Below, piece by piece: positions 29,806 to 45,457 of a DNA stretch of 64,000 nt. The DNA is from Stappia taiwanensis (GTDB lineage: Bacteria; Pseudomonadota; Alphaproteobacteria; Rhizobiales; Stappiaceae), in assembly GCF_014635285.1 (NCBI RefSeq), contig NZ_BMCR01000001.1, forward strand, positions 310,001 to 374,000, written 5' to 3'. Below the pieces are notes generated by a model. That model did not search any database, was not told where the DNA came from, and saw only the letters and a list, made by a program, of their open reading frames with translations. Position 1 is the first letter of the stretch, and every line of letters begins with the position of its first letter. Position numbers and translations under genes: made by a program.

Positions 29806-29830
29806 CTAGGGTCCAAGGTCTGGACCCTAG
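29806..29830. terminator. Inverted repeat between convergent lpxB and araC-type gene
   Basis: Perfect 10-bp arms, CTAGGGTCCA (29806-29815) and TGGACCCTAG (29821-29830), enclose a 5-base loop. The right arm contains the stop codon of the AraC-type gene. There is no T-run, so it may act as a weak bidirectional terminator or a processing stem. It sits at the left edge of the accessory segment. Confidence 0.5.
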
Positions 29831-30858
29831 AGTCGGCGGTAGCGCTGCGGGCTCATGCCCGTCCAGTTGCGGAAGGCGCGGGTGAAGGCGGACTGCTCCG
29901 AATAGCCGAGGTTGTAGGCGATTTCCGTCAGCGACATGTCCGGATCGTCCATGTAGTGCAGCGCAAGCTCATGCCGGGCGGCCTTGAGGATGTCCGGGAA
30001 GGCAAGCCCGTGTCGCCTGAGCTGCTTCTGGAAGCTGGAGCAGGACAGCCCCAGCACCGAGGCGATCTCCGGCAGGGTCGGCAGGCGGGAGCCCAAGTTG
30101 AGCTTGACCTGATTGCGCACCAGCGTGGCGAAGTCCGTCGGGTCCTCCAGTGAGGCGTTTCGGCTCTCCAGGAAGGCCTTCACCACGGAAAACAGATACG
30201 GGTCCTGATCCGGCATCTTGGCATCGAGATCCTTGCGCCGGAAAGCGATGGCATTGGTCCGCCGTCCGAACCGTACCGGCGCGTTGAACAGCCGCTCATG
30301 CTCGCTGCCGTCGTCGGGTGCGGAATGCTCGAAACGCACTTCTAGTGGCGCCCAGTCTTCGCCGAGCGCGGCGCGGAACACGTTGCAAAACATGCCCAGC
30401 GACAGTTCCGCATCCTGCCGACGGTTGATTACCCTGGGGTCGACGATCTGGTAGCTCAGCCACAGAACGCCATCATCCGGCAGGAGTCCGAAGGTGGTCT
30501 GTCCCTGATGCGCGGGGAAGTAGGTCTCCATGTGGCGCAGGCCAGCGGCCAGTGTCGGCGAGCTGATCGCCGCATAGCCAAGCATGCCAAGTTGTTTTGG
30601 CTGGAAATTCTTGCCGAAATGCAACCCGATGTTGTGATTTCCGGTTTGCTGCGCTGCAACCTCGAACATTTCGCAATACTGGGAGAGATTTACTTCGGAA
30701 ACCGGGTTTTCGAAGTCCTCATGCCGGATCCCTGTCTGTCCGAGGATCCGGTCGATGTCTCCCCCGCACGCGCGAAACAATTGTTCCGCTCCATTTGCCG
30801 CTGCCGACAAAACTTTAGACGGCGCCGTGAATTCGCACGAATTTACTGGCTGTTGCAC
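29827..30858 (-). CDS. AraC-family regulator, likely controller of the BMC operon
   Basis: A 343-residue regulator. The N-terminal 220 residues match the AraC-type ligand-binding arm (Arabinose_bd/OruR-like; LGMLGYAAISSPTLAAGLRHMETYFPAHQ). The C-terminus carries two helix-turn-helices: LPEIASVLGLSCSSFQKQLRRHG and the AraC signature MSLTEIAYNLGYSEQSAFTRAFRNWTGMSPQRYRR. The start is GTG with no clear ribosome site, so the exact N-terminus is uncertain. It diverges from the transporter/BMC operon across a 207-base gap, the usual layout for a dedicated activator. The inducer is unknown, possibly an amino alcohol or aminoacetone. Confidence 0.88.
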   Translation of the reverse strand: MQQPVNSCEFTAPSKVLSAAANGAEQLFRACGGDIDRILGQTGIRHEDFENPVSEVNLSQYCEMFEVAAQQTGNHNIGLHFGKNFQPKQLGMLGYAAISSPTLAAGLRHMETYFPAHQGQTTFGLLPDDGVLWLSYQIVDPRVINRRQDAELSLGMFCNVFRAALGEDWAPLEVRFEHSAPDDGSEHERLFNAPVRFGRRTNAIAFRRKDLDAKMPDQDPYLFSVVKAFLESRNASLEDPTDFATLVRNQVKLNLGSRLPTLPEIASVLGLSCSSFQKQLRRHGLAFPDILKAARHELALHYMDDPDMSLTEIAYNLGYSEQSAFTRAFRNWTGMSPQRYRRL

Positions 30859-31065: not shown

Positions 31066-32202
31066 ATGACTGTTACACGCAGACGATTTCTGGCGGGAAC
31101 CGCCGCCACGGCAGCGGGTCTGATGGTTGCCGGCCGCATGTCGCCGGCCCGTGCCGCGCGCAATGACCAGATGAACATTCTTTGCTGGGAAGGCTACAAC
31201 TCCGATGGGGTGCTCGGGCCATTCCGCGCCGCCAATTCCGGGGTCACCGTGCGCGCCGAAAGCGGCACTTCCGACCCGGACATGATCAACAAGCTGCGCG
31301 CCGGCGAGACCAGCGTCTGGGACCTGATCAACGTCAATCAGCCCTGGGCCCGCGACCAGCTTTACCCCGAAGGGCTGATCAAGCCGCTCAGCAAGGAGCG
31401 GTTCCTGCCGTATTTCGACAAGATGCTGCCGGAGTTCGCCGCGCCCTATCCGCTGGCCTTCGCCGACGATGGCAATCTCCTAGGCATGCCCCAGCGCTAC
31501 GGTCCGTTCAGCTTCGTCGTCAACACCGACAAGATCAGCCGGGAGACGGCGGAGGATCAGGGCTGGAACCTGTTCCTCGATCCGGCGATGAAGGGCCGCT
31601 ACGGCGTTCTGACCTATGACAACTGGAACGTCATTCACATGTGCCTGACCGCCGGGCTCAATCCCTTTGCCGCCATCGAGGGCGAGGGGCTGTCGAAGTT
31701 CCGCGACACGGCAATGGCGATCTTCGGCGGCGCCAAGCTGCTCACCGACGATCTGGTCGCCATGAACACGGCGCTGATCAACGGCGAGATCGATGCCTAT
31801 TTCACCGGCGGCACCTATACCGCGTCGCCGGCCCGCTATGATGGGGCAACCAATGTGCGGGCGATCACCCCGAACTCTGGTCCGGTGGACGGCAAGGGCG
31901 GCTGTGTCTGGGTCGAGTTGACCTCGGCGGTGAACAATCCCGACCCCAGCTCCGTCGCCGAGGACTTCCTGGAGTTCGTGCAGACGCCGGAGATCGCCAA
32001 GGCGGTGGCCTTCACCGAAGGCACCTACAACCCGGTCAGCCAGATGGGCAATCCGGACGTGTTGGCGCAGTTCGACAGCGAGGAGCTGGACGCGATTCAG
32101 ATGGACAGCCTGGCGGAGGAGATGGCCCGGTCGCTCGATTACGATGTGGTGACGTCCTACGACGCGCTGATCGACATCTACACCGAAGCCCGTCGCACCT
32201 GA
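31066..32202 (+). CDS. ABC transporter substrate-binding protein, PotD/PotF type, Tat-exported
   Basis: A 378-residue periplasmic binding protein. The leader RRRFLAGTAATAAGLMVAGR followed by ARA-AR is a twin-arginine signal. The mature part follows the SBP_bac_8/PotD fold (NILCWEGYNSDGVLGPF, PEGLIKPLS, PQRYGPFSFVVNTDKIS, AEDFLEFVQTPE). GGAGGGG precedes the ATG. It is the first gene of a run of 13 co-directional genes ending with BMC shell proteins. Polyamine-type binding proteins take small cationic amines, which would suit aminoacetone or an amino alcohol; the actual ligand is not determined. Confidence 0.9.
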   Translation: MTVTRRRFLAGTAATAAGLMVAGRMSPARAARNDQMNILCWEGYNSDGVLGPFRAANSGVTVRAESGTSDPDMINKLRAGETSVWDLINVNQPWARDQLYPEGLIKPLSKERFLPYFDKMLPEFAAPYPLAFADDGNLLGMPQRYGPFSFVVNTDKISRETAEDQGWNLFLDPAMKGRYGVLTYDNWNVIHMCLTAGLNPFAAIEGEGLSKFRDTAMAIFGGAKLLTDDLVAMNTALINGEIDAYFTGGTYTASPARYDGATNVRAITPNSGPVDGKGGCVWVELTSAVNNPDPSSVAEDFLEFVQTPEIAKAVAFTEGTYNPVSQMGNPDVLAQFDSEELDAIQMDSLAEEMARSLDYDVVTSYDALIDIYTEARRT

Positions 32203-32228
32203 CCGAAGCCAAGCGCTGGAAGCCATTC

Positions 32229-33314
32229 ATGACATCGCAACCCATCTTGCGGCTTCGGAATGTCGTCAAGACCTTCGGGAGCTTTACCGCGCTGCCCGGT
32301 GTGAACCTCGATATCGAGGAAGGTGAATTCTTCACCATCGTCGGTCCCTCGGGCAGTGGGAAATCGACGTTGATCCGTCTTCTCGTCGGCATGGACGAGG
32401 TGACTGAGGGGGAAATCTGGCTGCGCGACCGGCGCATCGACCAGACCCCGGCCAACCAGCGTCCCACCTGCATGGTGTTCCAGTCGCTTGCGCTGTTCCC
32501 GCATATGAGCGTGGGGCAGAACGTGGAATTCCCGCTGAAACTGCGCAAGGTCCCGGCCGAGAAGCGCCGGGACCGGGCGTTGGAGCTCCTGGATCTTCTG
32601 CGTCTGCCCCAGAGCTACTACAGCAAGCGGATTTCGCAATGTTCCGGTGGTGAACGGCAGCGGGTGGCGCTGGCCCGCGCGCTCGCCTTCGATCCGGAGA
32701 TCCTGTTCTTCGACGAACCGCTTTCCGCGCTCGATTACCGGCTTCGCAAGACGCTGGAAAAAGAGCTGAAGGATCTGCACTCCCGCACCGGCAAGACCTT
32801 CGTCTACATCACCCATTCGCTGGAGGAGGCAATGGTGATGTCCGACCGGATCGCCATCATGAACAAGGGGCATTTCGAGCAGATCGCCGTGGCCGACGAG
32901 ATCTACGGCCGGCCGGTCAACCGGTTCGTCGCCGAGTTCATGGGCGAGGTCAATCTGTTCGATGTCACCGGCACAGACGGGGGCGGGCTCTCCGGTGCGG
33001 GGCTGGAAAGTCATATGAACGGCCATGCCGAGACCTGCGGCGTGGCGATGGCGCCTGGTGCCACTGGCACCTTGATGGTGCGGCCGGAATACGTGCGCTT
33101 CCTTGCCAGTTCCGACACCGCCGACTTCACCCTGCGCGGCATTTTGCACGGCGAATACGCCCTTGGCTCGCGCATTCAATACGAGGTGGAGACGCTAGGC
33201 GGGCAGGTGATCACCGTGGAGAAGCTGCGCGAGGACCGGGTCGACCGTCAGCCGGGCGCCGAGGTGGTACTGGGGTTCGATGGCGACCATGTTCACCTGA
33301 TCCGGGGGCAGTGA
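32229..33314 (+). CDS. ABC transporter ATPase, PotA/PotG type
   Basis: A 361-residue ATPase. Walker A is GPSGSGKSTLIRLL, the signature is CSGGERQRVALARALAF, Walker B is EILFFDEPLSALD and the H-loop is ITHSLEEA. A C-terminal TOBE-like domain covers about 260-361, as in polyamine and iron(III) importers. It starts 26 bases after the binding-protein gene, and its stop overlaps the next ATG (TGATG). Confidence 0.93.
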   Translation: MTSQPILRLRNVVKTFGSFTALPGVNLDIEEGEFFTIVGPSGSGKSTLIRLLVGMDEVTEGEIWLRDRRIDQTPANQRPTCMVFQSLALFPHMSVGQNVEFPLKLRKVPAEKRRDRALELLDLLRLPQSYYSKRISQCSGGERQRVALARALAFDPEILFFDEPLSALDYRLRKTLEKELKDLHSRTGKTFVYITHSLEEAMVMSDRIAIMNKGHFEQIAVADEIYGRPVNRFVAEFMGEVNLFDVTGTDGGGLSGAGLESHMNGHAETCGVAMAPGATGTLMVRPEYVRFLASSDTADFTLRGILHGEYALGSRIQYEVETLGGQVITVEKLREDRVDRQPGAEVVLGFDGDHVHLIRGQ

Positions 33315-34168
33315 TGGAGCGTCACGACCGCAAACTGGGTCTTCTGTCGGCGATGCCCCTGGGGCTGATCCTCGTGCTCAGCTTCCTGGCGCCGCTTGTG
33401 GTGGTCGCCGTCTTTTCCGTGATGCCGGCGAAGGTGTTCACCCTGGCACATATGCCGGACTTCTCCGCCTACAGCGTCTTCTTCGAGCGCGGCTATTACA
33501 AATCGCTGCTGTGGTCGCTCGCCATGGCACTCATTGCCACCCTGGCGTTGTTCCTGGTCTGCTGGCCGCTGGCCTTCGGCATGGCCAAGGTGTTTGGCCG
33601 GTTTACCCTGGTCCTCACCGTTGCCGTGGTGATGAGCCTGTTCGTGTCGGAAAACATCCGCCTGTTCGGTTGGGTGCTGACCCTGATGAAGGGCGGTCTG
33701 TTCGAGGGCTACTTCCGCTCTCTGACCGGCATCGGCTTTGACAGCCCGCTCTACAACACCGGCATCATCATCTTCGGGCTGGTCTACGTCTATCTGCCCT
33801 TCATGCTGTTTCCGCTGGCCCAGGGCATTTCCATGGTTCCGGACGATACACGCCAGGCGGCGGCCGATCTCGGTGCCTCGCGCTGGCAGATCCTGTGTCA
33901 GGTCGAGCTGCCACTGGCCGCGCCCGGCATCATGGTCGGCTCCCTCCTGACCTTCGTGCTGGCGGCCGGGGCACTGGCGGAATCCAAGATCCTCGGCGGT
34001 CAGGCGGTGATCGTCATCGCCGATGATATCGAAACCGCCTTCACCTTCGGCCAGAACTGGCCGCTCGGCGCGGCGCTCTCCATGGTGCTGATCGTCATCA
34101 TCGGCGGGCTTGCGCTGTTCGGTGTCAGCCGGATCGACCTCGACGCGATCATGGGGAGGAAGCGCTGA
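33314..34168 (+). CDS. ABC transporter permease, PotB/PotH type
   Basis: A 284-residue inner-membrane permease with about six hydrophobic segments and the cytoplasmic EAA loop (DDTRQAAADLGASRWQILCQVELPLAAPGI). A GTG three bases upstream (33311) is an alternative start; either way it overlaps the ATPase gene. Its stop overlaps the second permease by one base. Confidence 0.92.
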   Translation: MERHDRKLGLLSAMPLGLILVLSFLAPLVVVAVFSVMPAKVFTLAHMPDFSAYSVFFERGYYKSLLWSLAMALIATLALFLVCWPLAFGMAKVFGRFTLVLTVAVVMSLFVSENIRLFGWVLTLMKGGLFEGYFRSLTGIGFDSPLYNTGIIIFGLVYVYLPFMLFPLAQGISMVPDDTRQAAADLGASRWQILCQVELPLAAPGIMVGSLLTFVLAAGALAESKILGGQAVIVIADDIETAFTFGQNWPLGAALSMVLIVIIGGLALFGVSRIDLDAIMGRKR

Positions 34169-34974
34169 TGAAAACGAGCCAGACAACCCGGATCGCGCTC
34201 TATGTCTATGGCGTGGCGATCATCGTCTTTCTCTACCTGCCGCTGGTGTCGGTCGGCTTTGCCTCGATTTCCAAGGCGCGCTACCTGAGCTTCCCGATCC
34301 GGCACTACTCGACCAAATGGTACGCCGAGGCGCTGCGCAGCGATACGGTGAGCGATCTGCTCTTCACCTCGCTGAAGGTGGCGGTGATCGTCACGCTGGT
34401 ATCGATGGTGGTGGCCTTTTTCGGCGCGCTGGCCTTTGCCCGCTACCAGTGGCGCTTCTGCAGCCTGTTTCAGAAGCTGATCCTGCTGCCGATCTTCTTT
34501 CCGCAGACCGTGCTCGGGCTGGCGCTCTTGATGTGGTTCAACTCGGTTGGGGTGATCCCGTCCTGGAAGACCGCAGTTGTCGCCCATCTGGTTTGGATCG
34601 CGCCAATCGCCACCCTGATCGTTGCCATTCGCGCCTATAGTTTCGACCCGGCGCTGGAGGAGGCGGCGCGCGACATGGGGGCATCGACCGTGACGATCCT
34701 GCGTGAGGTGACTCTGCCGCTGCTGATGCCGGGTCTCGTCTCCGCCGGTCTGTTCGCCTTTCTGCTCAGCTGGGGCAATTTCCCGCTGTCGCTGTTCACC
34801 ACCGGCGCGGATTCGACCCTGCCGGAATGGCTCTACGCAAAGATGGTCTCCGGCTATTCGCCGCTGGTGCCGACACTGGGAGTGATGTCGGTCGTCGGCT
34901 CCTTTGCCCTGATCCTTCTGGCCATGTCCATCGGCTGGCTGGTCAGGTCCGTGCGGGAGGCGCGGGCCGGATAA
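34168..34974 (+). CDS. ABC transporter permease, PotC/PotI type
   Basis: A 268-residue second permease. It has six predicted membrane segments and an EAA loop at LEEAARDMGASTVTILREVTLPLLMPGL. With the three preceding genes it completes a PotFGHI-type importer. The SDR gene follows after 48 bases, so transport and catabolism are probably on one transcript. Confidence 0.92.
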   Translation: MKTSQTTRIALYVYGVAIIVFLYLPLVSVGFASISKARYLSFPIRHYSTKWYAEALRSDTVSDLLFTSLKVAVIVTLVSMVVAFFGALAFARYQWRFCSLFQKLILLPIFFPQTVLGLALLMWFNSVGVIPSWKTAVVAHLVWIAPIATLIVAIRAYSFDPALEEAARDMGASTVTILREVTLPLLMPGLVSAGLFAFLLSWGNFPLSLFTTGADSTLPEWLYAKMVSGYSPLVPTLGVMSVVGSFALILLAMSIGWLVRSVREARAG

Positions 34975-35022
34975 GAGCGGCAGGGCAGGAACACACGTAC
35001 TTGGAGCAACTCGGGAGGAAAC

Positions 35023-35793
35023 ATGCTCACATCCATCAAGGGAAAAAGCGTCATTGTCACCGGCGGGTCGAAGGGGATCGGCCGAGGCATCGCCTCCGTC
35101 TTCGCCCGGCAGGGCGCCAGGGTGACCCTGGCGGCGCGCGGCGAGGAGGCGCTGAAGAATGCCGCCGCCGAGATCGGCGGGGAGGTGCGCTACGAGGTCT
35201 GCGACGTCGCCGACTGGGACAGCATGCGTGCCATGGTCGACAGCACGGCCCGGGCGCAAGGCGGGATCGACATCCTGTGCGCCAATGCCGGCGTCTTTCC
35301 CCAGACCAAGATGGTCGACATGGATCCGGCCGAATGGGACCGGGTGATGGCGACCAACCTTCGCTCCTCCTTCCTGTCGGTGAAGGCCTGCATTCCCCAT
35401 TTCGAGAAGGCGGGCAAGGGCAGGGTGGTGCTGACCTCCTCGATCACCGGCCCGGTGACCGGTTTTCCCGGCTGGTCCCATTACGGCGCTTCCAAGGCCG
35501 GGCAGCTCGGCTTCCTGAAGACCGCCGCGATGGAGCTGGCCCGCTACAACACCACCATCAACGCGGTCATGCCGGGCAACATCTACACCGAGGGCCTTCA
35601 GGACCTTGGCCAGGACTATCTCGACACCATGGCCGCCTCGATCCCCTTGAAGCGTCTCGGCGCGGTGGAGGATATCGGCAACGCCGCCCTGTTCTTCGCC
35701 TCCGATGAGGCCGGCTACATCACAGGTCAGCAGATCGTGGTCGATGGCGGGCAGATCCTCCCCGAATCGCTTGAGGCGATCGCGGAGATCTAG
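35023..35793 (+). CDS. SDR-family NAD(P)-dependent amino-alcohol dehydrogenase (predicted)
   Basis: A 256-residue classical short-chain dehydrogenase: TGGSKGIG (13-20), NAG (88-90), Ser near 139-140 and YxxxK (Tyr154, Lys158), ending in a VDGGQILPES substrate-side tail. GGGAGGAAAC precedes the ATG. In RMM-type microcompartments an SDR interconverts aminoacetone and 1-amino-2-propanol. By position this is the same enzyme; direction and substrate are inferred. In reducing aminoacetone it would regenerate the NAD+ that the aldehyde dehydrogenase needs. Confidence 0.8.
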   Translation: MLTSIKGKSVIVTGGSKGIGRGIASVFARQGARVTLAARGEEALKNAAAEIGGEVRYEVCDVADWDSMRAMVDSTARAQGGIDILCANAGVFPQTKMVDMDPAEWDRVMATNLRSSFLSVKACIPHFEKAGKGRVVLTSSITGPVTGFPGWSHYGASKAGQLGFLKTAAMELARYNTTINAVMPGNIYTEGLQDLGQDYLDTMAASIPLKRLGAVEDIGNAALFFASDEAGYITGQQIVVDGGQILPESLEAIAEI

Positions 35794-35798
35794 GTCGG

Positions 35799-35905
35799 CC
35801 TTCGCGGCGTCCGGCTAGGGCACCGCGACCGGAAAGCCCGATCGAATTCCAGCAGTCAGGGCCCCCGCGCCTCGCCAGGCGGCGGGGCGGCCCGGACGCC
35901 GAAGG
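35799..35905 (+). other. Long-range stem between SDR and kinase genes
   Basis: The strand at 35799-35814 pairs with 35892-35905 over 14 bp, with a two-base bulge. It encloses a GC-rich interior with further self-complementarity (GCCCC...GGGGC). It fills the 124-base gap between two operon genes and ends just before the kinase ribosome site. It could be an mRNA processing or stability element. Confidence 0.4.
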
Positions 35906-35917
35906 TTAGGAAACAGC

Positions 35918-36979
35918 ATGTCTAAATGCGATATGCCGCTCGAGGAGCTCCTCGAGCGATTGGAGACGCTTGCCAATCGCTCACTCATCCTGTGGGACGT
36001 CCCGGACGGGGCAACGGCTCGGCTGATCAATGTCTCGGAGAACGCGACTTATCTGGTCGAGGCGGGGGACTTTCGCTCCGTGCTGCGGGTCCACCGGGAG
36101 AATTATCACTCCGAACGGGCGATCGAATGCGAGCTGGCCTGGTCCGACGCGCTGAATGCGGAGGCCGGCATCACCACCCCCGGGGTCTATGTCGGGCGCA
36201 ATGGCAAGCGCATCCAGCAAGGCAGCGTGCCGGGACTGCCGGCGCCGCGTTACATGGTGATGTTCCATTTCGTCGAGGGCGCGCAGCCAGACGAAAGCCA
36301 GGACCTGGTCGGCCATTTCGAGAAGCTCGGCGAGATTGCCGCCCGCACCCACAACCATTCCGTCAGCTGGCAACGCCCGGTGAATTTTGAACGGCTGGTG
36401 TGGGAGGAGGAGGCGGTCTTCGGGCGGAACCCGACCTGGGGCGACTGGCGCGATGGCCCGGAGGTGGATGGTCCGACCCGCGAAGTGCTGGAGGAGGTCG
36501 AGGCGCTGGTTCGCCAGCGGCTGGCCGCCTTCGGCAAGGGGCCGGACCGCTTCGGCCTGATCCACGCGGACATGCGCCTTGCCAACCTGCTGCTCAGCCC
36601 CGAGGGGCCGCGCCTGATCGACTTCGATGACTGCGGCATGGGCTGGTTCCTCTACGATTTTGCTTCCGCCATCAGCTTCATGGAAGACCACCCGGCTGTG
36701 CCGGACCTCAAGACCGCCTGGGTGCGCGGCTACCGCCGGCATCGGCCTCTCAGTGCGGCGGAAGAGCGGGAAATCGACACCTTCATCATGCTCCGCCGGA
36801 TGGCGCTGCTGGCCTGGATCGGCAGCCATATCGAGGCGCCCGAGCCACAGGCGTTGGCGCCCGGGTTCGCCCGTGTGACGGCGGAGCTGGGCGCGGACTA
36901 CCTGCGCCGGGTGGGTGAGGGCCAGCCTGTCAATTCAAACTGCGGACCTGTCAAGTCAGTCCTGCGGAAATCGCTCTAA
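35918..36979 (+). CDS. APH-fold amino-alcohol kinase (predicted 1-amino-2-propanol kinase)
   Basis: A 353-residue aminoglycoside-phosphotransferase-fold kinase. The Brenner motif HxDxxxxN is at 216-223 (HADMRLAN), and the metal-binding DFD is at 235-237. The nucleotide-loop region (INVSENATYLVEAG) is also visible. In the RMM pathway such a kinase phosphorylates (S)-1-amino-2-propanol with ATP, making the leaving group for the next enzyme. The last 15 residues look unlike family sequence and overlap a DNA motif that also occurs in the operon promoter region (36938-36957). Ethanolamine or choline as substrate cannot be excluded. Confidence 0.82.
   Translation: MSKCDMPLEELLERLETLANRSLILWDVPDGATARLINVSENATYLVEAGDFRSVLRVHRENYHSERAIECELAWSDALNAEAGITTPGVYVGRNGKRIQQGSVPGLPAPRYMVMFHFVEGAQPDESQDLVGHFEKLGEIAARTHNHSVSWQRPVNFERLVWEEEAVFGRNPTWGDWRDGPEVDGPTREVLEEVEALVRQRLAAFGKGPDRFGLIHADMRLANLLLSPEGPRLIDFDDCGMGWFLYDFASAISFMEDHPAVPDLKTAWVRGYRRHRPLSAAEEREIDTFIMLRRMALLAWIGSHIEAPEPQALAPGFARVTAELGADYLRRVGEGQPVNSNCGPVKSVLRKSL
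36938..36957 (+). promoter_or_regulatory. Second copy of the AACTG..TGTCAAGTC element
   Basis: AACTG-N6-TGTCAAGTC inside the 3-prime end of the kinase gene, with GCGGAAA after it, mirrors the element at 30965-30983. It lies 50 bases before the ATG of the PLP enzyme gene and could be an internal operator or promoter element. Chance cannot be excluded. Confidence 0.35.
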
Positions 36980-37007
36980 GTAGCGGTAACTGTTGAAAGG
37001 AAGCCCG

Positions 37008-38279
37008 ATGTCCCAGGCGAAGACAGAGTTTCTGGAACGGTCCAAGACCTTCTGGAATCCAGGGAAGACGCAGGACTGGATCGACATGGGAGTCGATCTG
37101 GTGATCGACCGGCGTGAAGGCTATCACCTTTACGATATGGACGGCCGTCGCCTGATCGACCTGCATCTGAATGGCGGTACCTACAACCTCGGGCACCGCC
37201 ATCCGGAACTGGTGGAAGTGTTGAAGGCCGGCACCGAGCGCTTCGACATGGGCAACCACCATTTCCCGGCGCTGGCCCGCACCGCGCTGGCCGAGGCGCT
37301 GCAGGCGGTCGCTCCCGGTCCCAACTTCAAGTACACCGCCTACGGGTCCGGTGGCGGCGAGGCCATCGACATTGCCCTGAAGACCGCCCGTCACGCCGCG
37401 CAGAAGAAGAAGATCGTCTCGATCGTCAAGGCCTACCACGGCCACACCGGTCTGGCGGTGAAGACCGGCGACGACCGCTTTTCCAAACTGTTTCTCTCCG
37501 AGGATGCGCAAGGGGAATTCGTTCAGGTTCCCTTCAACGACCTCAATGCGATGGAAGACGCCCTGCGCGGCCGGGATGTCGCCGCCGTGATCATGGAAAC
37601 GATCCCGGCGACCTATGGCTTCCCCATGCCCGAGGTCGGCTATCTGCCGGCGGTGAAGAAGCTCTGCGAGAAATACGATGCCTTCTACATCGCCGACGAG
37701 GTGCAGACCGGCCTCATGCGCACCGGTGAGATGTGGGGCTGCACCAAATACGGCGTCGAGCCGGACATCATGGTCACCGGCAAGGGCATTTCCGGCGGCA
37801 TGTACCCCATTGCCTGTGTGCTGATTTCCGAGCGTTGCGGCGGCTGGCTGTCGGAGGATGGCTTCGGCCACATCTCCACCATGGGCGGCGCGGAGCTTGG
37901 CTGCATCGTCGCCATGAAGACGCTGGAGATCATCCAGCGCCCGGAGGTGCGCACCATGGTGCAGTACATCGGCGATTATCTGCGGGCAGGTCTCGACGAC
38001 ATCATGGCCCAGTTCCCCGACTTCTTCATCGGCATCCGCCAGCACGGCGTGATCATGGGGCTGGAGTTCAATCACGAACAGGGCGCCAAGCCGGTGATGA
38101 AGCACCTTTATGAAAACGGGGTCTGGGCGATCTTTTCCACGCTCGATCCCCGGGTGCTGCAGTTCAAGCCGGGCCTTCTGCTCAGCCAGGCCGATGCCGA
38201 GGACGTGCTTCGGCGCGTCGCCATCGCCGTCGAGCTGGCGCGGGATGAGGTCATGGGCAGCCGCCGGAGGACGTACTGA
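37008..38279 (+). CDS. Class III aminotransferase-fold phospho-lyase (predicted amino-alcohol phosphate lyase)
   Basis: A 423-residue PLP enzyme of the class III aminotransferase family. The PLP-lysine is Lys259 (VTGKGISGGMYP), Asp230 (ADEVQTG) contacts the ring nitrogen, and the phosphate-site GSGGGEA is at 113-119. In this family amino-alcohol-phosphate phospho-lyases eliminate phosphate and ammonia to give an aldehyde. Placed after a kinase and before an aldehyde dehydrogenase, that role (propionaldehyde from aminopropanol phosphate) is more likely than transamination. The ATG follows AAAGGAAG; an upstream in-frame TTG is rejected. The stop overlaps the next gene. Confidence 0.85.
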   Translation: MSQAKTEFLERSKTFWNPGKTQDWIDMGVDLVIDRREGYHLYDMDGRRLIDLHLNGGTYNLGHRHPELVEVLKAGTERFDMGNHHFPALARTALAEALQAVAPGPNFKYTAYGSGGGEAIDIALKTARHAAQKKKIVSIVKAYHGHTGLAVKTGDDRFSKLFLSEDAQGEFVQVPFNDLNAMEDALRGRDVAAVIMETIPATYGFPMPEVGYLPAVKKLCEKYDAFYIADEVQTGLMRTGEMWGCTKYGVEPDIMVTGKGISGGMYPIACVLISERCGGWLSEDGFGHISTMGGAELGCIVAMKTLEIIQRPEVRTMVQYIGDYLRAGLDDIMAQFPDFFIGIRQHGVIMGLEFNHEQGAKPVMKHLYENGVWAIFSTLDPRVLQFKPGLLLSQADAEDVLRRVAIAVELARDEVMGSRRRTY

Positions 38280-39874
38280 TGGATCAGGCGCTTTACAATT
38301 CGCTTGTCGATATTTCGGACAGCCCCGCCGCGCGCGCCGGCAAGGCGGATCTGATGCTGGACCGTGCCCGCTGGGCCGCCACCGTCTTCGACCGCTACGA
38401 TCGGGCCGCGACCATGGCGATTGTCGATGCGGTCGCCGAGGCGGCCCATGCGATGGCCGGGGAGATGGCGACCAAGGCGGTGGAGGAAACCGGCTTCGGC
38501 GTTGCCGAGCACAAGAAGCTGAAGAACGAGCTGACCGCGCGTCCACTGGTGGAGCACTACCGCGATCAGGATTTCGTCAACTCGCGCATTGATGACGCGC
38601 GCAAGATCGTCGAAATCCCCCGGCCGGCCGGGGTGATCTTCGCGCTGACCCCCTCGACCAATCCGGTGGCGACCCTCAACTACAAGATCCTGTTGGCGAT
38701 GATGACCCGCAACGCCATCGTTATCTCGCCCCATCCGGCGGCGCGCGCGGTCTCCATCGAGGCGGCAACGGCGCTGGCCCGGGCGGCGGAGTCCGCCGGT
38801 GCGCCGAGCGGTGCCATCCAGATCCTGGAGACGCCGTCGATCCCGCTGGTCGAGGCTTTCATGACCTCGCCGAAGACCAACGTGATCCTGGCGACCGGTG
38901 GCACGCCGATGGTGCGCGCGGCCTATTCCTCTTCCAATCCGGCGATTGGCGTGGGGCCGGGCAACGCCCCGGTGTTCGTCGATACCTCGGCGGATATCGG
39001 CGCCGCCGCCCAGGCCATCGTTGCCTCAAAATCCTTCGACAACTCGATCCTGTGCACCAACGAAAGCGTGCTGATCACGGTTCCGGAGGTCGAGAACCAG
39101 TTGCGGATGGCGCTGAAGTCCGCCGGCGCCTACCTGTGCACGGAGGAGGAGACGGCGGCCTTGCGCCGGTTCCTGTTCCATCCGCGCGGCTTCAACGTGG
39201 AAGCCATTGGCCGGGACGCCACCTGGATTGCCCAGGAATGCAACATTCGCGTTCCCGCCAACACCCGGATCCTGGTGACGCCCATCACGCAGATCGGCGT
39301 GGAAGAGCGGCTGTCCAAGGAAAAGCTGTGCCCGGTTCTGGCTCTTCATGTTGCAAAGACCCGAACGCAGGCCCTCTCCCAGGCCCGCGCGGTCCTGCGG
39401 TTGACCGGAGCCGGGCACTCGGCGGCAATCCATGCCCGCGATGAGGCGGTGATCATGGACTATGCCGCGCTGGTGGAGGCCTACCGCGTGGTGGTGAATG
39501 CGCCCTGCTCGCAAGGGGCGGCGGGTTTCGCCACCAATCTGGCGCCCACCTTCACCATCGGCACCGGTTTCTTCGGCCGCTCGTCCATCGGCGAAAACGT
39601 CGGCCCCCAGCACCTCGTTCACTGGACCCGCATTGCCTACAACGCCGACCGGAAGGTGCCCTTCGGCAACTTTCAAGGCGTGACCCGCGCCTTCCGGGGA
39701 CAGCTTCCCACCGCGCCCGCCGATGGTGTGCCGGGCACCGCACCGCCGCGCTACGCCGCCCCGTCGGCTGCCCTGTCCCCCGCACCGTCGGCGGCGTCCT
39801 CGCTGGACGCTGCGACCAAGGACGAGCTGCGCCGCCTGATTGCGGCCGAGCTTCGCGATCTCCTGAGGAAATAA
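38279..39874 (+). CDS. CoA-acylating aldehyde dehydrogenase with C-terminal encapsulation helix
   Basis: A 531-residue protein of the PduP/EutE/AdhE aldehyde dehydrogenase group, which makes acyl-CoA from an aldehyde with NAD+ and CoA. The catalytic Cys is about 259 in SKSFDNSILCTNES; GVGPGNAPVFVD and EERLSKEKLCPVLALH are typical of the acylating type. After residue about 475 comes a Pro/Ala/Ser-rich linker and then an amphipathic helix over the last 20 or so residues (KDELRRLIAAELRDLLRK), the layout of BMC encapsulation peptides. This should be the signature enzyme of the compartment, probably acting on propionaldehyde. Confidence 0.9.
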   Translation: MDQALYNSLVDISDSPAARAGKADLMLDRARWAATVFDRYDRAATMAIVDAVAEAAHAMAGEMATKAVEETGFGVAEHKKLKNELTARPLVEHYRDQDFVNSRIDDARKIVEIPRPAGVIFALTPSTNPVATLNYKILLAMMTRNAIVISPHPAARAVSIEAATALARAAESAGAPSGAIQILETPSIPLVEAFMTSPKTNVILATGGTPMVRAAYSSSNPAIGVGPGNAPVFVDTSADIGAAAQAIVASKSFDNSILCTNESVLITVPEVENQLRMALKSAGAYLCTEEETAALRRFLFHPRGFNVEAIGRDATWIAQECNIRVPANTRILVTPITQIGVEERLSKEKLCPVLALHVAKTRTQALSQARAVLRLTGAGHSAAIHARDEAVIMDYAALVEAYRVVVNAPCSQGAAGFATNLAPTFTIGTGFFGRSSIGENVGPQHLVHWTRIAYNADRKVPFGNFQGVTRAFRGQLPTAPADGVPGTAPPRYAAPSAALSPAPSAASSLDAATKDELRRLIAAELRDLLRK

Positions 39875-39878
39875 CCCC

Positions 39879-40490
39879 ATGGCAGACCTTCGCTCCTTCA
39901 TTTTCATCGACCAGTTGCAGCCGCAGACGCTGGCCTATGTGGCGACCTGGATGCGCGGCAGCCTGCCACGCTCGCGCATGGCCGCGCAGATTATCGAGAT
40001 CGCCCCCGGGCTCGACATCGAGGCCCTGACCGACGTGGCGCTGAAAAGCGCCGACGTAAAGGCCGGCCTTCTGGTGGTCGAGCGCCAGTTCGGCACGCTG
40101 GAGTTCCATTCCCGCTCCACCGCCGAGGTGCAGGCCGGTGCCGACGCGGTGCTTCACGCGCTTGGCGCGCGGCGCGAGGATGCGGCGCCGCCGAAGATCC
40201 TCGCTTCGAAGATCGTCACGCGGGTGGATCACCAGCACGCCTTCCTGATGAACCGCAACCGCATGGGCTCGATGATCCTCGGCGGCGACAGCCTCTACCT
40301 CCTGGAATGCCAGTCGGCCTCCTACGCCATGCTGGCCTGCAACGAGGCGGAGAAGGAAGCGAACATCAAGCTGATCGACTACCGCATGATCGGCCCGAAC
40401 GGGCGGCTTTATCTCGCCGGTGACGAGGCGGAGGTGCGCAATGCGCGCAACGCAGCGGAAGCCGCACTGCGGTCGGCGGGAGCGGTCTAG
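39879..40490 (+). CDS. BMC tandem-domain (trimeric) shell protein 1
   Basis: A 203-residue protein with two BMC-fold repeats (about 1-100 and 105-203), ending GRLYLAGDEAEVRNARNAAEAAL like a BMC C-terminal helix. It shares its N-terminal pattern (LQPQxxAYxAT), length and the block ERQFGxLExHS with the second tandem protein at 41533, so the two are paralogues. BMC-T trimers form shell tiles, often with large gated pores. The stop overlaps the start of the next gene. Confidence 0.85.
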   Translation: MADLRSFIFIDQLQPQTLAYVATWMRGSLPRSRMAAQIIEIAPGLDIEALTDVALKSADVKAGLLVVERQFGTLEFHSRSTAEVQAGADAVLHALGARREDAAPPKILASKIVTRVDHQHAFLMNRNRMGSMILGGDSLYLLECQSASYAMLACNEAEKEANIKLIDYRMIGPNGRLYLAGDEAEVRNARNAAEAALRSAGAV

Positions 40491-40939
40491 TGGACGACCT
40501 TCGCCAAGTCCTTCGCGAGCTGTTGCGCGAGGAACTGGGCCGGGTGCGGGCGGATCTGGCGCCCGCCGCCGCGCCGCAGGTCACGCAGGAAGCGGTGGCG
40601 ATCCGCTCCAGCGCCGATCTCAACGCCTTCGCCCTCAGGGTGCTGGAGATGGCCCAGGACGGCGCGCGCCGGGCCGACATTCTCGCCGGGCGCCACCGTT
40701 TCCGCCTTGCCGAGGACGGCGCGCCGGTGCGGATCGAGGCGCATCAGCCGGCGGCCCCGCCGCCACAGGCCGCGCCCCGTCAGGTGCGGTTCGAGCGGGG
40801 GATGATCTCGGAACGGGACATCGCCGGCCTGCCGGACGGGACCACATCGGTTCTTGCGGATAAATCCGTGCGGCTCACCCCTCTGGCCCGCGACGAGTTG
40901 CGGCGTCGGGGCATCCGACTTGAAAGGACAGCGTCATGA
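40490..40939 (+). CDS. Unrecognised BMC-associated protein with N-terminal encapsulation-like helix
   Basis: 149 residues; the GTG start overlaps the previous stop (TAGTG) and the end overlaps the pentamer gene (ATGA), so it belongs to the shell gene set. Residues 1-21 (MDDLRQVLRELLREELGRVR) form an amphipathic helix very like the C-terminal helix of the aldehyde dehydrogenase. A Pro/Ala linker, a middle segment (DLNAFALRVLEMAQDGARRADILAGRHRF), a second Pro-rich linker (about 84-95) and a C-terminal block (VRLTPLARDELRRRGIRLER) follow. No catalytic motif is visible and it is not PduL-like. It could be a lumen scaffold or adaptor. Confidence 0.7.
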   Translation: MDDLRQVLRELLREELGRVRADLAPAAAPQVTQEAVAIRSSADLNAFALRVLEMAQDGARRADILAGRHRFRLAEDGAPVRIEAHQPAAPPPQAAPRQVRFERGMISERDIAGLPDGTTSVLADKSVRLTPLARDELRRRGIRLERTAS

Positions 40940-41172
40940 TCCGTGGAAAAGTGACAGGCCGGGTCTGGGCCACCAAACGCATCGACACCCTGCCGGTCGG
41001 CTCCCTGCTGGAGGTCGATGTCGCCGGCACCACCATCATCGCCTTCGACCCGCTCGGCTGCGCCGAGGGTGAGGACGTGCTGATCACCCAGGGCTCTGTT
41101 GCCGCTGGATATTTCACCAAGATCAAGGCTCCGGTCGATGCGCTGATCATCGGCTCGATCGACGAGAACTGA
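40936..41172 (+). CDS. BMC pentameric vertex protein (EutN/CcmL family)
   Basis: A 78-residue EutN/CcmL protein (MIRGKVTGRVWATKRIDTLP, EGEDVLITQGSVA, VDALIIGSID). Five copies cap each vertex of the polyhedral shell. The preceding gene overlaps its ATG by 4 bases. It is the only vertex protein gene in the window. Confidence 0.94.
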   Translation: MIRGKVTGRVWATKRIDTLPVGSLLEVDVAGTTIIAFDPLGCAEGEDVLITQGSVAAGYFTKIKAPVDALIIGSIDEN

Positions 41173-41220
41173 CGGGCGGCCCCGCCCGTTCTGGACAAGA
41201 CCTGAAAGAGGAGAAGCATC

Positions 41221-41505
41221 ATGGCTAGTCAGGCAATTGGAATGATCGAGACCCGTGGCTATGTGCCGGCGCTGACCGCTGCCGACGCGATGGTCAAGGC
41301 GGCCAATGTGGAGATCGTCGCCCGCAACGAGGTCGGCGGCGGGCTTGTCTCGGTGGTCGTCAAGGGCGACGTCGGTGCGGTCAAGGCCGCGACCGAGGCC
41401 GGCGCGGAAGCCGCCAACCAGATCGGCGAAGTGGTGTCGGTGCATGTGATCCCGCGTCCGCATCCCGATCTCGGCAAGCACTTCGAAGCCGCGAACGTCA
41501 AGTAA
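41221..41505 (+). CDS. BMC hexameric shell protein (PduA/CcmK family)
   Basis: A 94-residue single-domain shell protein ([55 protein letters not shown]). The pore loop, which is K-I-G-S-G-L in PduA-like proteins, reads E-V-G-G-G-L here (37-42), so the central pore lacks the usual serine and may be slightly wider and less polar. It is the only BMC-H gene seen. Confidence 0.95.
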
Positions 41506-41532
41506 GGCATCGATCAGGAGAAGGCCGGAACC

Positions 41533-42162
41533 ATGACAGAACTCAGGGTCTATCTGCCGATCCAGGATCTGCAGCCACAGTTTGCGGCCTATCTTGCAAC
41601 GCCGCTGCGGGCGCGGGGCTATCCGCCCTTCGAGGGTCAGAACAGCCTGATCATCGAGGTGGCCCCCGCGCTTGCCATTCACCGGATCGCCGATCTGGCC
41701 TTGAAGGAATCGCCGGACATGGAGCCCGGCATTCTCTTCACCGAGCGCCAGTTCGGCCTCCTGGAGCTGCATTCCGACGATCCGGAGGAATTGCAGAAGG
41801 CCGGACAGGCGATCCTGAAGGGGATCGGCGCCAAGGACAGCGACCAATTGGCGCCGAAGATCCTGTTTCAGGACATCATCGACGACCTGTCGGACCAGCA
41901 CGCGATCATCCTCAACCGGTCACGCGATGCGTCGATCCTGGTGCCCGGCGTGTCCTTGCTGATCTACGAGATGGCGCCGGCGCTGTTTGCCTGTGTCGCC
42001 GCCAACGAGGCGGAGCGGGCCGCGCCCGAAGCCACCCTCAACGATGTGCAGATGATGGGCGCCACCGGCCGCATCTTCATGTCGGGCTCGCGGGCGGACA
42101 TGGAAAAGGCCCGCGATGCCATCACCCGGACACTGGAACAAGTGCAGGGGCGGGCGGGGTAG
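41533..42162 (+). CDS. BMC tandem-domain (trimeric) shell protein 2
   Basis: A 209-residue paralogue of the first tandem shell protein (LQPQFAAYLATPL, TERQFGLLELHS, QHAIILNRSRDASI, GATGRIFMSGSRADMEKARDAI). It ends the operon: a long hairpin terminator lies 37 bases downstream. With one hexamer, one pentamer and two tandem proteins the shell set is small but complete. Confidence 0.87.
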   Translation: MTELRVYLPIQDLQPQFAAYLATPLRARGYPPFEGQNSLIIEVAPALAIHRIADLALKESPDMEPGILFTERQFGLLELHSDDPEELQKAGQAILKGIGAKDSDQLAPKILFQDIIDDLSDQHAIILNRSRDASILVPGVSLLIYEMAPALFACVAANEAERAAPEATLNDVQMMGATGRIFMSGSRADMEKARDAITRTLEQVQGRAG

Positions 42163-42264: not shown

Positions 42265-43284
42265 TCAGACCGCTTTCGCCAGTTCGCCGGCAAGGGCCTT
42301 TGCCGGAACGAAGTTGGTCTCGTAAAAACGCAGCCAGTTCTCGCCGAGAATGCCGTCGGTCTCGGCCTCCGAGAAACCGACCGCCAGCAAACCGTCGCGC
42401 AAGTTTCCGAAGTCCCGGTTGTCCCGGTACCACTCCGGCATCGGCGGGAAGCCCGGATTGTCCGCCGAGCCCTCGCCATAGTCGATCGACTTCGACCAGC
42501 GGCCGACCCGCATCCATTCCACCACGCTGTCCGGCTGGTCCTGGCACAGGTCCGAGCCGATGCCGATGGCGGCTGGCCCCATGATCTCCGCCGTGCGCGC
42601 CGCCATCTCGCAGAAGCTGGCCAGCGTGCAGTCGGACTTGTCCTTCAGGTGATGGGGGTAGAGCGAGAACCCGAGCATGCCGCCCGACTGGGCCAGCGCC
42701 CGCAGGATGTCATCGCTCTTGTTGCGCAGGGCAGGGGCCCAGGCCTTCGGATTGGCGTGGGTGATGGCGATCGGCCGGGTGGAAATCTCCATCGCTTCGA
42801 AGGTGGAGCGGTCCGCCGAATGGCTCATGTCGATGACGAGCCCGACACGGTTCATTTCGCGGATCACCTCTTTGCCCATGCGGGTGATGCCGGGGTCTTC
42901 CGCCTCGTAGCAGCCGGTGGCGAGCAGCGACTGGTTGTTGTAGCTGAGCTGCATGAAGCGGGCGCCGAGGTCATGAAGCACCTCGACGAGGCCGATATCA
43001 TCCTCGATGGGCGAGGGGTTCTGGAAGCCGAAGAAGATCGCCGTACGGCCGGTCTCGCGTGCCCGGCGCACGTCGCTGGCCCAGCGCCCGGGCATGATCA
43101 GGTCGCCGTGCTGCTCGAACCAGCGATTCCACTTCTCGATATTGGCGACGGTTTCGCGGAAGGTCTCGTGATAGGCGATGGTCACATGCACCGCGTCGAG
43201 CCCGCCGGCGCGCATCTGTTCAAAGATCTTACGCGACCAGTTGGCGTATTGCAGATTGTCGATGCGAAAGGCCGGGCTTGCCAT
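42265..43284 (-). CDS. M19 (renal dipeptidase) family protein lacking the HxD motif
   Basis: A 339-residue protein of the membrane-dipeptidase fold: VIDMSHSADRS, PIAITHANPKAW, GGMLGFSLYPHHL, IGIGSDLCQDQP. In typical M19 enzymes the N-terminus carries a HxD metal pair (DGHND-type) and a bridging Glu in an EGG-like motif. Here the equivalents read RIDNLQYANWSR and FQNPSPIEDD, so the binuclear zinc site looks altered. A related M19 group occurs beside methylated-glycine catabolism genes in pseudomonads, as I recall. Peptidase activity should not be assumed. Convergent with the BMC operon, divergent from the LysR gene. Confidence 0.78.
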   Translation of the reverse strand: MASPAFRIDNLQYANWSRKIFEQMRAGGLDAVHVTIAYHETFRETVANIEKWNRWFEQHGDLIMPGRWASDVRRARETGRTAIFFGFQNPSPIEDDIGLVEVLHDLGARFMQLSYNNQSLLATGCYEAEDPGITRMGKEVIREMNRVGLVIDMSHSADRSTFEAMEISTRPIAITHANPKAWAPALRNKSDDILRALAQSGGMLGFSLYPHHLKDKSDCTLASFCEMAARTAEIMGPAAIGIGSDLCQDQPDSVVEWMRVGRWSKSIDYGEGSADNPGFPPMPEWYRDNRDFGNLRDGLLAVGFSEAETDGILGENWLRFYETNFVPAKALAGELAKAV

Positions 43285-43365
43285 GGGCGGGGTCGTGCTC
43301 CTCGAAAAGAAAGCGCCGCCCGAAACGGCGGTGCGACTGTTGCCGCACTCTCGACCCGGAGACAG

Positions 43366-43414
43366 ATTTCAGTCAAAATCAAATATCTGAAACGAACTTG
43401 AGAAAACCTGAAAT
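43366..43414 (+). promoter_or_regulatory. TTTCAG/CTGAAA inverted repeats upstream of the LysR gene
   Basis: ATTTCAG at 43366-43372, CTGAAA at 43387-43392 and CTGAAAT at 43408-43414 lie in the 128-base divergent region between the M19-like gene and the LysR gene; the last touches the LysR ATG. A related repeat occurs after the LysR gene (44277-44299). This fits auto-regulation by the LysR protein but is untested. Confidence 0.4.
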
Positions 43415-44294
43415 GGCAATCAAGCTGGAGATGTTGCGCTGCTTCGCGGCGGTGGCGCAGCGGGGCAATCTGTCCGAGGCTGCGGACCATCTTGGCCGCA
43501 CCCCCTCGGCGGTGTCGATGATGCTCAAGCAGTTCGAGGAGCACCTTGGCGCGCCCTTGTTCGAGACTGAGCGCAAGAGCAAGCTGACCGGCCTCGGCCA
43601 GCATATCTTCGAACAGGCGTTGCAGACGGTGAACCATTTCGACGGCACGGTCGATGAGATGCTGAGCTATGCCCGCTCCGAATCCGGCTCCGTTCGGATC
43701 GCCGCCGTGCCCTCGGTCGCGGCCAGCATCCTGCCGGAGGTGATCAAGACCTTCGCCCGCGCCCGACCTCGGGTCTTCATCGACCTGCGGGACATGGATT
43801 CGCTTGCGGTGACCCGTGAGTTGACCCGCGGCCGCGTCGATATCGGCCTGGCGAGCTTTGCCAACGATAGCGGCGAGCTGCTTGTTGAGCCGTTCCTGTC
43901 AGATCCATTCGGGCTGGTTTGTCCGCCGGATCATCCGCTGGCCGAACGGGGAGCGCCCGTCGACTGGAGCGATCTGCAAGGGCTCGACTTCCTCGCCAAC
44001 GGCACCTGCTTCCAGATCACGGTTCCGGAGTTCAAGCCGATCCTCGACGGCTCCCGCATGATGGTGCGCAACAACACCTCGCTGTTCTCGCTGGTCCGGG
44101 CGGGGGTTGGTGTGACGCTCCTGCCGGAACTGACCATGCGCGGTGTGTCCGACCTGCGGTTCCTGCCGCTGGCTGATGAAAACGCGCGGCGGCGGGTCGG
44201 GATCCTGCGTGCGGCCCGCGCGGTTCCAAGCCCGGCAGTTCTGGCGTTCCTGGAGGAGTTGCGCGATCTCAGGTTGAAACTTCAGGAAAGCTGA
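43413..44294 (+). CDS. LysR-family transcriptional regulator
   Basis: A 293-residue LTTR. The N-terminal winged HTH is clear (IKLEMLRCFAAVAQRGNLSEAADHLGRTPSAVSMMLKQFEEHLGAPLFE), followed by a LysR substrate domain (about 92-285, SVRIAAVPSVAASILPEVIKTFARARP). I chose the ATG that starts directly before the HTH; a longer reading adds unrelated sequence. It likely controls the divergent M19-like gene and/or the TAXI transporter genes downstream. Confidence 0.92.
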   Translation: MAIKLEMLRCFAAVAQRGNLSEAADHLGRTPSAVSMMLKQFEEHLGAPLFETERKSKLTGLGQHIFEQALQTVNHFDGTVDEMLSYARSESGSVRIAAVPSVAASILPEVIKTFARARPRVFIDLRDMDSLAVTRELTRGRVDIGLASFANDSGELLVEPFLSDPFGLVCPPDHPLAERGAPVDWSDLQGLDFLANGTCFQITVPEFKPILDGSRMMVRNNTSLFSLVRAGVGVTLLPELTMRGVSDLRFLPLADENARRRVGILRAARAVPSPAVLAFLEELRDLRLKLQES

Positions 44295-45443: not shown

Positions 45444-45457
45444 CGCCCGTGTGGCCC

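What the first reader, a model, noticed from the sequence alone, without database searches (positions are those of the whole stretch)
31066..42162. Complete RMM-like microcompartment operon with its own amine importer
Thirteen co-directional genes with short gaps or overlaps encode a PotFGHI-type importer, SDR, APH-type kinase, class III PLP enzyme, CoA-acylating aldehyde dehydrogenase, two tandem shell proteins, one hexamer, one pentamer and an unknown protein. No diol dehydratase, ethanolamine ammonia-lyase or glycyl radical enzyme is present, which excludes PDU, EUT and GRM types. The enzyme set is that of the Rhodococcus/Mycobacterium microcompartment, assigned to aminoacetone/1-amino-2-propanol. 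Its occurrence in an alphaproteobacterium with a linked ABC importer and AraC regulator looks unusual. No phosphotransacylase (PduL-like) is seen, so CoA recycling must happen otherwise.
Basis: partly seen in the sequence, partly recalled or inferred. Interest (0 to 1): 0.87.

Follow-up and report, generated by a model that had tools for sequence, protein, structure and literature searches.

The report
Alphaproteobacterial RMM microcompartment with swapped lyase
A marine bacterium carries a gene cluster for a protein-shelled compartment that probably breaks down the small amine 1-amino-2-propanol; the compartment type is known and found in many relatives, but here the key aldehyde-releasing enzyme comes from a different protein lineage than in the Rhodococcus version, which makes it a useful natural swap experiment.

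Summary
In detail: 13 co-directional genes (31066-42162) plus a divergent AraC gene in a Stappia genome. Tdp1, BMC-H, kinase and SDR match solved mycobacterial RMM proteins, and the order AldDH-Tdp-unknown-P-H-Tdp is that of the Rhodococcus jostii RHA1 RMM locus. The RMM reading holds; 'unusual in an alphaproteobacterium' does not: a Tdp1 scan found 307 related stretches (best 80 examined), the importer's binding protein is in 57 of 75 complete loci, and alphaproteobacterial RMM2 is already catalogued. New is the class III PLP enzyme: it is not of the lineage of RHA1's RMM lyase, has Q for the transaminase arginine (85 of 85 rows), and fills the slot where shell-free kinase operons, RHA1 and one Vibrio locus have the known phospho-lyase family. 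Most likely, importer, SDR and kinase supply 1-amino-2-propanol phosphate, the PLP enzyme splits it to propionaldehyde, ammonia and phosphate, and the shell-held AldDH makes propionyl-CoA. Encapsulation-like helices were found on AldDH and the unknown protein (80 of 80 each), not on lyase, kinase or SDR. No PduL was found in the genome. Substrate, SDR direction and enzyme location are inferred. Verdict: new variant of a known kind.

The parts
29827..30858 (-). AraC-family regulator (Arabinose_bd + HTH), divergent
   Evidence: an AraC homologue of 37% or more is present in 23 of 38 complete loci with the same PLP class, some of the rest being cut by contig ends
31066..32202 (+). PotD/PotF-type solute-binding protein (twin-arginine-like N-terminus, by eye)
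   Evidence: ligand unknown
32229..33314 (+). PotA/PotG-type ABC ATPase
33311..34168 (+). ABC permease 1
34168..34974 (+). ABC permease 2
35023..35793 (+). SDR, likely 1-amino-2-propanol/aminoacetone dehydrogenase
   Evidence: best PDB matches 6ci8 and 6ci9, 305 and 302 bits; NCBIfam names it 3-oxoacyl-ACP reductase FabG (396 bits, cut-off 333), the name that the PDB also gives 6ci8 and 6ci9
35918..36979 (+). APH-type amino-alcohol kinase
   Evidence: 6ef6, 292 bits
37008..38279 (+). class III PLP enzyme (PLP-A), likely amino-alcohol-phosphate phospho-lyase; the ORF listing starts it at 36993 (TTG)
38279..39874 (+). CoA-acylating type aldehyde dehydrogenase with C-terminal encapsulation-like helix
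39879..40490 (+). BMC-Tdp1 (MSM0275-like)
   Evidence: 5l39, 270 bits
40490..40939 (+). unknown protein: N-terminal encapsulation-like helix and two small domains; weak PduM-like C-terminus
40936..41172 (+). BMC-P vertex protein
41221..41505 (+). BMC-H (MSM0272-like)
   Evidence: 5l38, 130 bits
41533..42162 (+). BMC-Tdp2

Best explanation
A working RMM-type metabolosome operon for 1-amino-2-propanol (and, through the SDR, aminoacetone). The PotFGHI-type importer brings the amine in (inferred). The SDR interconverts aminoacetone and 1-amino-2-propanol, and the APH kinase makes the O-phosphate, both probably in the cytosol (inferred). PLP-A, a class III enzyme that lacks the transaminase arginine, eliminates phosphate and ammonia to give propionaldehyde (inferred, well supported by context). 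The AldDH, held in the shell by its C-terminal helix and perhaps organised by the unknown protein, makes propionyl-CoA, which leaves for the methylmalonyl-CoA route. The shell of BMC-H, BMC-P and two BMC-Tdp confines the aldehyde. With no PduL or Pdu-type alcohol dehydrogenase in the operon, CoA and NAD must cross the shell, the large gated Tdp pores being the likely way (inferred; PMC8217296, part read, predicts these pores as conduits for larger metabolites).
For: Best solved matches of Tdp1, of BMC-H (after one designed fusion), kinase and SDR are RMM proteins (that 6ef6, 6ci8 and 6ci9 are the RMM kinase and dehydrogenase is recalled, the paper titles were seen in reference lists). AldDH-Tdp-unknown-P-H-Tdp order equals that of RHA1. 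In shell-free loci L042, L043 and L065 the same importer, SDR and kinase sit with another PLP enzyme (PLP-B), and that of L065 hits phospholyase 5g4i at 338 bits and human ethanolamine-phosphate phospho-lyase 6tor at 311 bits; RHA1's RMM and the Vibrio locus L151 have PLP-B relatives (45% and 53%). PLP-A has Q where PatA has Arg in 85 of 85 rows; PLP-B has K in 14 of 14. 16 of 75 complete loci carry a diol dehydratase relative, Pfam-confirmed in L078, which would make propionaldehyde from 1,2-propanediol. CbiZ, which releases 1-amino-2-propanol from cobinamide (recalled), lies in two shell-free operons, L186 and L042. Methylmalonyl-CoA mutase family: 2 hits in the genome.
Against: No assay. 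CbiZ was not found in this genome (5 controls rang) nor in the fetched stretches of the 80 named BMC loci. The aminopropanol of cobamides is the R form, while the studied kinase and SDR prefer S (both recalled). PLP, kinase and SDR carry no encapsulation motif of the kind sought, so the place of the lyase is not shown; a hydrophobic-moment measure did not single out AldDH. 11 of 75 complete loci have no kinase of 50% or more nearby, some of them cut by contig ends. NCBIfam's own name for the SDR is FabG.
Confidence: 0.75

Rival explanations
1. Same chemistry, but ethanolamine is the main substrate: phosphoethanolamine is split to acetaldehyde, and the AldDH makes acetyl-CoA.
For: A PLP-B relative matches ethanolamine-phosphate phospho-lyase; L128 has a choline/ethanolamine-kinase-like gene and an amidase instead of the importer-SDR-kinase module, and L139 has the same genes besides a 36% kinase homologue; the APC permease of RHA1 is annotated ethanolamine permease; best PDB match of the AldDH is an acetylating acetaldehyde dehydrogenase.
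Against: Kinase and SDR match the aminopropanol enzymes best (names recalled); ethanolamine needs no SDR; diol dehydratase and CbiZ context point to C3.
Confidence: 0.15
2. The PLP enzyme is a true transaminase (for example aminoacetone to methylglyoxal, as PMC4207490 suggested).
For: Best PDB matches are putrescine, acetylornithine and ornithine aminotransferases; proposal read in passages.
Against: Arg position is Q in 85 of 85 rows; the kinase would have no role; a phospho-lyase family fills the slot elsewhere.
Confidence: 0.05
3. A polyamine catabolic operon: the importer takes up putrescine and PLP-A is a putrescine aminotransferase.
For: Importer type and PatA as best PDB match.
Against: It gives the kinase no role; the AldDH is of the CoA-acylating EutE/AdhE type; the importer accompanies the kinase and SDR in shell-free loci too. 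The rest of the genome was not searched for polyamine genes.
Confidence: 0.05

Closest known systems
RMM/AAUM microcompartment of Rhodococcus jostii RHA1 (pRHL2) and Mycobacterium smegmatis
   Same: To RHA1: Tdp1 67%, Tdp2 63%, BMC-H 77%, BMC-P 47%, AldDH 48%, kinase 40%, order AldDH-Tdp-unknown-P-H-Tdp. To M. smegmatis: PDB matches
   Different: Lyase of another class III lineage (RHA1's is 45% to PLP-B, 26% to PLP-A); ABC importer instead of APC permease; AraC instead of GntR; SDR in the operon, none matched in the 30 kb of RHA1
RMM2 as catalogued in 2021 (includes Paracoccus yeei TT13)
   Same: Alphaproteobacterial host; sister loci with diol dehydratase occur (16 of 75 complete loci)
   Different: No diol dehydratase found in this genome (three positive genomes)
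Shell-free aminopropanol-kinase/phospho-lyase operons (Agrobacterium fabrum C58 L187, A. tumefaciens CG920 L186, L042, L043, L065)
   Same: Same importer, SDR and kinase, 42-61% identity
   Different: No shell; no AldDH of 45% or more to this one in the fetched stretch; lyase is PLP-B; DeoR regulator; isochorismatase-like hydrolase; CbiZ in two

Membership tests
RMM (broad) | RMM-like shell: one BMC-H, one BMC-P, two BMC-Tdp | tested here: met
RMM (broad) | AldDH present, no PduL phosphotransacylase | tested here: met
RMM (broad) | APH phosphotransferase and SDR of the RMM kind | tested here: met
RMM (broad) | class III aminotransferase-fold enzyme | tested here: met
RMM as in R. jostii RHA1 | orthologous lyase | tested here: not met
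RMM1 (Axen 2014 text) | amino acid permease in the locus | tested here: not met
   ABC importer in its place
RMM1 (Axen 2014 text) | GntR regulator in the locus | tested here: not met
   AraC instead; the rest of the genome was not searched for GntR
RMM2 (Axen 2014 text) | diol dehydratase genes | tested here: not met
   (one search had no ringing control)
RMM (function) | aminoacetone/1-amino-2-propanol to propionyl-CoA | not testable with these tools
   needs assays
PDU/EUT/GRM | diol dehydratase, ethanolamine ammonia-lyase or glycyl radical enzyme in the operon | tested here: not met
   gene content of 31066-42162; of the three only diol dehydratase was sought genome-wide

The most novel reading that the evidence does not exclude
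The proteobacterial RMM uses a second, separately derived amino-alcohol-phosphate phospho-lyase lineage (PLP-A). Shell, AldDH, PLP-A and unknown protein form one fixed unit that works in the lumen, while importer, SDR and kinase are a cytosolic unit exchanged between shelled and shell-free pathways; the shell is therefore an optional add-on whose benefit can be measured between close relatives.
Probability: 0.5. Interest if true: 0.62.

Novelty: new variant of a known kind. Interest (0 to 1): 0.45.

Why it matters
RMM poses an open question: which of its enzymes lie inside, and how cofactors are recycled without PduL. The comparison gives a concrete prediction (AldDH and the unknown protein inside, with the lyase; SDR and kinase outside) and a natural with/without-shell contrast on the same kinase and importer. 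It also names a candidate second phospho-lyase lineage to assay.

Tried and rejected
Rejected: that the locus is rare in Proteobacteria. Diol dehydratase: the Pfam search of the own genome had no ringing control, so it was repeated with a protein query in five genomes, three of which rang and the two Stappia genomes did not. The isochorismatase-like hydrolase, present in 43 of 75 complete sister loci, is absent from both Stappia genomes with the locus while three controls rang, so it is not essential.

Led nowhere: a conserved AraC site in 22 intergenic regions (best 18-base word of the window: mean 6.1 mismatches over 20 other regions, against 6.9 for the best word of five shuffles; weak); promoter and terminator scan (0 promoters against 1.5 expected, 8 terminators against 7.2); Rfam, nothing near the operon and no riboswitch in six related loci; fold search of the unknown protein, no match at E 0.001 or better, from a model of mean pLDDT 79 but pTM 0.34; Pfam, only a sub-threshold PduM-like C-terminus in 4 of 11 members. 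In 11 of the 12 congeners without the cluster (G007 was not fetched) none of seven other genes from around the insert (lpxI, araC, sbp, M19, LysR, TAXI, TRAP) was found in the about 15 kb fetched on the downstream side of lpxB, so the block looks gained; the site itself was not shown empty, and these congeners are distant (LpxB 65-70%).

Against my reading: the hydrophobic-moment test of C-termini gave mean z 1.3 for AldDH, 0.8 for PLP and 1.9 for the kinase, so it does not separate AldDH; that script then crashed at the SDR and never reached the unknown protein; one search replaced it with regular expressions written after the AldDH and unknown-protein ends had been seen. PLP-B of the Vibrio BMC locus L151 has no such motif.
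Full report
Check of the observation. The 13 genes and the divergent AraC gene are present as described; families are. The largest gap inside the run is 124 bases (SDR to kinase). Active-site residues are intact and invariant across relatives: 65 of 65 SDR, 65 of 65 kinase, 77 of 77 AldDH, 72 of 72 PLP rows, window included (rows shorter than 75% of the window protein or below the identity limits were dropped). The genome (4.42 Mb) is of a Stappia: Tdp1 is 100% identical to Stappia indica SN13-18, whose cluster is 97-100% identical gene by gene. In 11 of the 12 others nothing from around the cluster was found in the about 15 kb fetched beside lpxB, so the block looks gained.

What it is. Best solved relatives: kinase 6ef6 (292 bits), SDR 6ci8 and 6ci9 (305 and 302 bits), Tdp1 5l39 named RMM shell protein MSM0275 (270 bits), BMC-H 5l38 named RMM shell protein MSM0272 (130 bits; a tandem BMC-H fusion, 6ner, scores higher). 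BMC-P and Tdp2 were not searched in the PDB. The PDB calls 6ef6 an aminoglycoside phosphotransferase and 6ci8 a 3-oxoacyl reductase; that they are the M. smegmatis aminopropanol kinase and dehydrogenase of Mallette and Kimber is recalled. Titles of those papers were seen in the reference lists of PMC8156839 and PMC8007038; the kinase paper and a shell-structure paper were asked for and are not held. The RMM locus of R. jostii RHA1 on pRHL2 gives a direct comparison: AldDH 48%, Tdp1 67%, unknown 24% (33 bits), BMC-P 47%, BMC-H 77%, Tdp2 63%, in the same order; kinase 40%; GntR and an APC permease instead of AraC and ABC.

Distribution. A scan of genome contigs with a 9-row Tdp1 alignment found 307 stretches that encode a relative, of which the best 80 were returned. 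All but two of the 80 (titles Neomarinimicrobiota and Sulfurimonas) name Proteobacteria or fall there. The counts below are on these 80, so they lean to close relatives. 75 have a complete core; in 71 of 75 the order lyase-AldDH-Tdp1-unknown-P-H-Tdp2 is unbroken with gaps under 400 bases. The four others are L093 (lyase hit in two pieces), L098 (a second BMC-H upstream), L124 (AldDH hit in two pieces) and L151 (PLP-B, downstream). A kinase of 50% or more lies upstream in 34, downstream in 25, on the opposite strand in 5 and was not found in 11 of 75. The importer's binding protein is in 57, a diol dehydratase relative in 16 and an isochorismatase-like hydrolase in 43 of 75; the last two were confirmed by Pfam in L078 only. 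In 385 sampled alphaproteobacterial genomes a kinase relative (E 1e-20, some only about 30% identical) was found in 34 and Tdp1 in 11, both in 7, this genome included. So the type is patchy but widespread, and an ABC importer is its usual partner in Proteobacteria.

The lyase. The window PLP enzyme's best PDB hits are putrescine aminotransferases (175 bits), and neither 5g4i nor 6tor is among its 44 hits at 1e-30. Ten sampled shell-free loci with the kinase have a different class III enzyme, PLP-B, 25-28% identical to PLP-A (three more, L071-L073, have PLP-B beside a kinase of 31-34%). That of L065 hits phospholyase 5g4i at 338 bits and human ethanolamine-phosphate phospho-lyase 6tor at 311 bits. 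Of the ten, three (L042, L043, L065) have the same PotFGHI-type importer, six the SDR and four the isochorismatase-like hydrolase. Two Agrobacterium plasmids show importer, SDR, kinase and PLP-B together. RHA1's RMM lyase is 45% identical to PLP-B against 26% to PLP-A, and in Vibrio sp. S9_S30 (L151) an RMM shell and AldDH occur with PLP-B and without PLP-A in the 20.6 kb held. Hence PLP-A and PLP-B seem to fill one slot. The residue aligned with the PatA arginine before the PP motif (its role in 2-oxo acid binding in ornithine and GABA aminotransferases is recalled) is Q in 85 of 85 PLP-A rows and K in 14 of 14 PLP-B rows, the catalytic lysine being kept in all 99 (at least two loci, L034/L077 and L047/L146, are in that set twice). 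PLP-A relatives at 57-58% on Phyllobacterium and Mesorhizobium plasmids lie directly behind a phosphodiesterase gene, and one at 49% on a Pseudomonas plasmid beside an APH kinase, again a setting of phosphorylated substrates. The step PLP-A = phospho-lyase is inferred.

Substrate. For 1-amino-2-propanol speak the kinase and SDR matches, the diol dehydratase relatives beside 16 of 75 cores (a second source of propionaldehyde; PMC8156839 notes growth of the RMM2 strain Paracoccus yeei TT13 on 1,2-propanediol, passage), and CbiZ, adenosylcobinamide amidohydrolase, in two shell-free operons: L186 (115 bits) and L042 (176 bits), with a short CbiZ-like frame in C58. CbiZ releases aminopropanol from cobinamide (recalled). 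CbiZ was not found in this genome, so the source here is unknown. Two methylmalonyl-CoA mutase family hits are present. Against a fixed substrate: sister loci L128, L139, L086 and L151 carry an amidase, a choline/ethanolamine-kinase-like protein and a third protein, with a sugar-type ABC importer (Pfam in L128, by eye in L139 and L151), so the shell unit may be re-used for other amino alcohols.

What is inside. A helix of encapsulation-peptide type is at the C-terminus of AldDH in 80 of 80 and at the N-terminus of the unknown protein in 80 of 80; the AldDH expression finds none in the last 30 or first 30 aligned residues of PLP (0 of 73), kinase (0 of 64) or SDR (0 of 63). The expressions were written after seeing the first two, and an amphipathicity score did not separate AldDH. 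In RHA1 a 1686-base exact duplication starts in the last 97 bases of the AldDH gene and puts the AldDH tail on the PLP-B lyase; this may be a real targeting event or an assembly fault. A kinase tree of 102 rows needs 9 changes of the shell label, at least 6 forced by well-supported branches, and joins a shelled and a shell-free locus, L036 and L037, at 96/86; its bootstrap had not fully settled. The uptake-kinase unit has thus moved between the two settings.

Literature. PMC4207490 (passages) defines RMM1 and RMM2 and proposes a transaminase route. PMC8217296 (passages, and two of seven parts of its main section) mentions RMM2 outliers; 'aminotransferase' and 'kinase' do not occur in its main text. 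PMC8156839 (passages) lists RMM2 in Paracoccus yeei TT13. PMC8007038 was seen in passages. Eight searches listed no paper whose title or abstract start describes a second lyase lineage in RMM; the library lacks most subscription papers and supplements could not be read, so this is weak evidence of novelty. From recall, the 2018 kinase paper already noted that the kinase is widespread in Proteobacteria and often next to a candidate phospho-lyase.

Verdict. A real RMM-type operon, common in its group, with a non-orthologous lyase, an ABC importer and an AraC regulator: a new variant of a known kind.

Noticed in passing
L179:5626-10930 (also L180, L181 by shell pattern): RMM-like shell block with a 44% AldDH, an unknown protein of 287 aa and a TauD-type dioxygenase (204 bits) in front, no kinase or PLP match: possibly another aldehyde source using this shell. 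Genes were called in L179 only.
   Followed up: partly
L128:12386-19288, L139, L086, L151: RMM-type cores beside an amidase, a choline/ethanolamine-kinase-like protein and a 312-aa protein without Pfam hit; may be a route for another, perhaps amide-bound, amino alcohol.
   Followed up: partly
L124, L126, L127: Near-identical DNA (88.7-99.9% in the aligned pieces) of one RMM locus in MAGs labelled Neomarinimicrobiota, Gammaproteobacteria and Sulfurimonas; mis-binning is as likely as the phage transfer that PMC8217296 proposed for such outliers, if these are the same ones.
   Followed up: partly
L184:15897-21475: Exact 1686-base duplication in the R. jostii RHA1 RMM locus gives the lyase the AldDH encapsulation tail; real or assembly fault unknown.
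   Followed up: partly
L186:16188-16865, L042:1513-2244: CbiZ in shell-free aminopropanol-kinase operons: possible link of cobinamide salvage to aminopropanol use.
   Followed up: partly
window 42265-47356: M19 dipeptidase, LysR regulator, TAXI-like binding protein and DctM-type TRAP transporter follow the operon; M19 and LysR are at 97% in S. indica, none was seen beside lpxB in 11 congeners.
   Followed up: no
window 14789-14891: rpsB sRNA match just above the Rfam threshold (40.4 against 40 bits).
   Followed up: no
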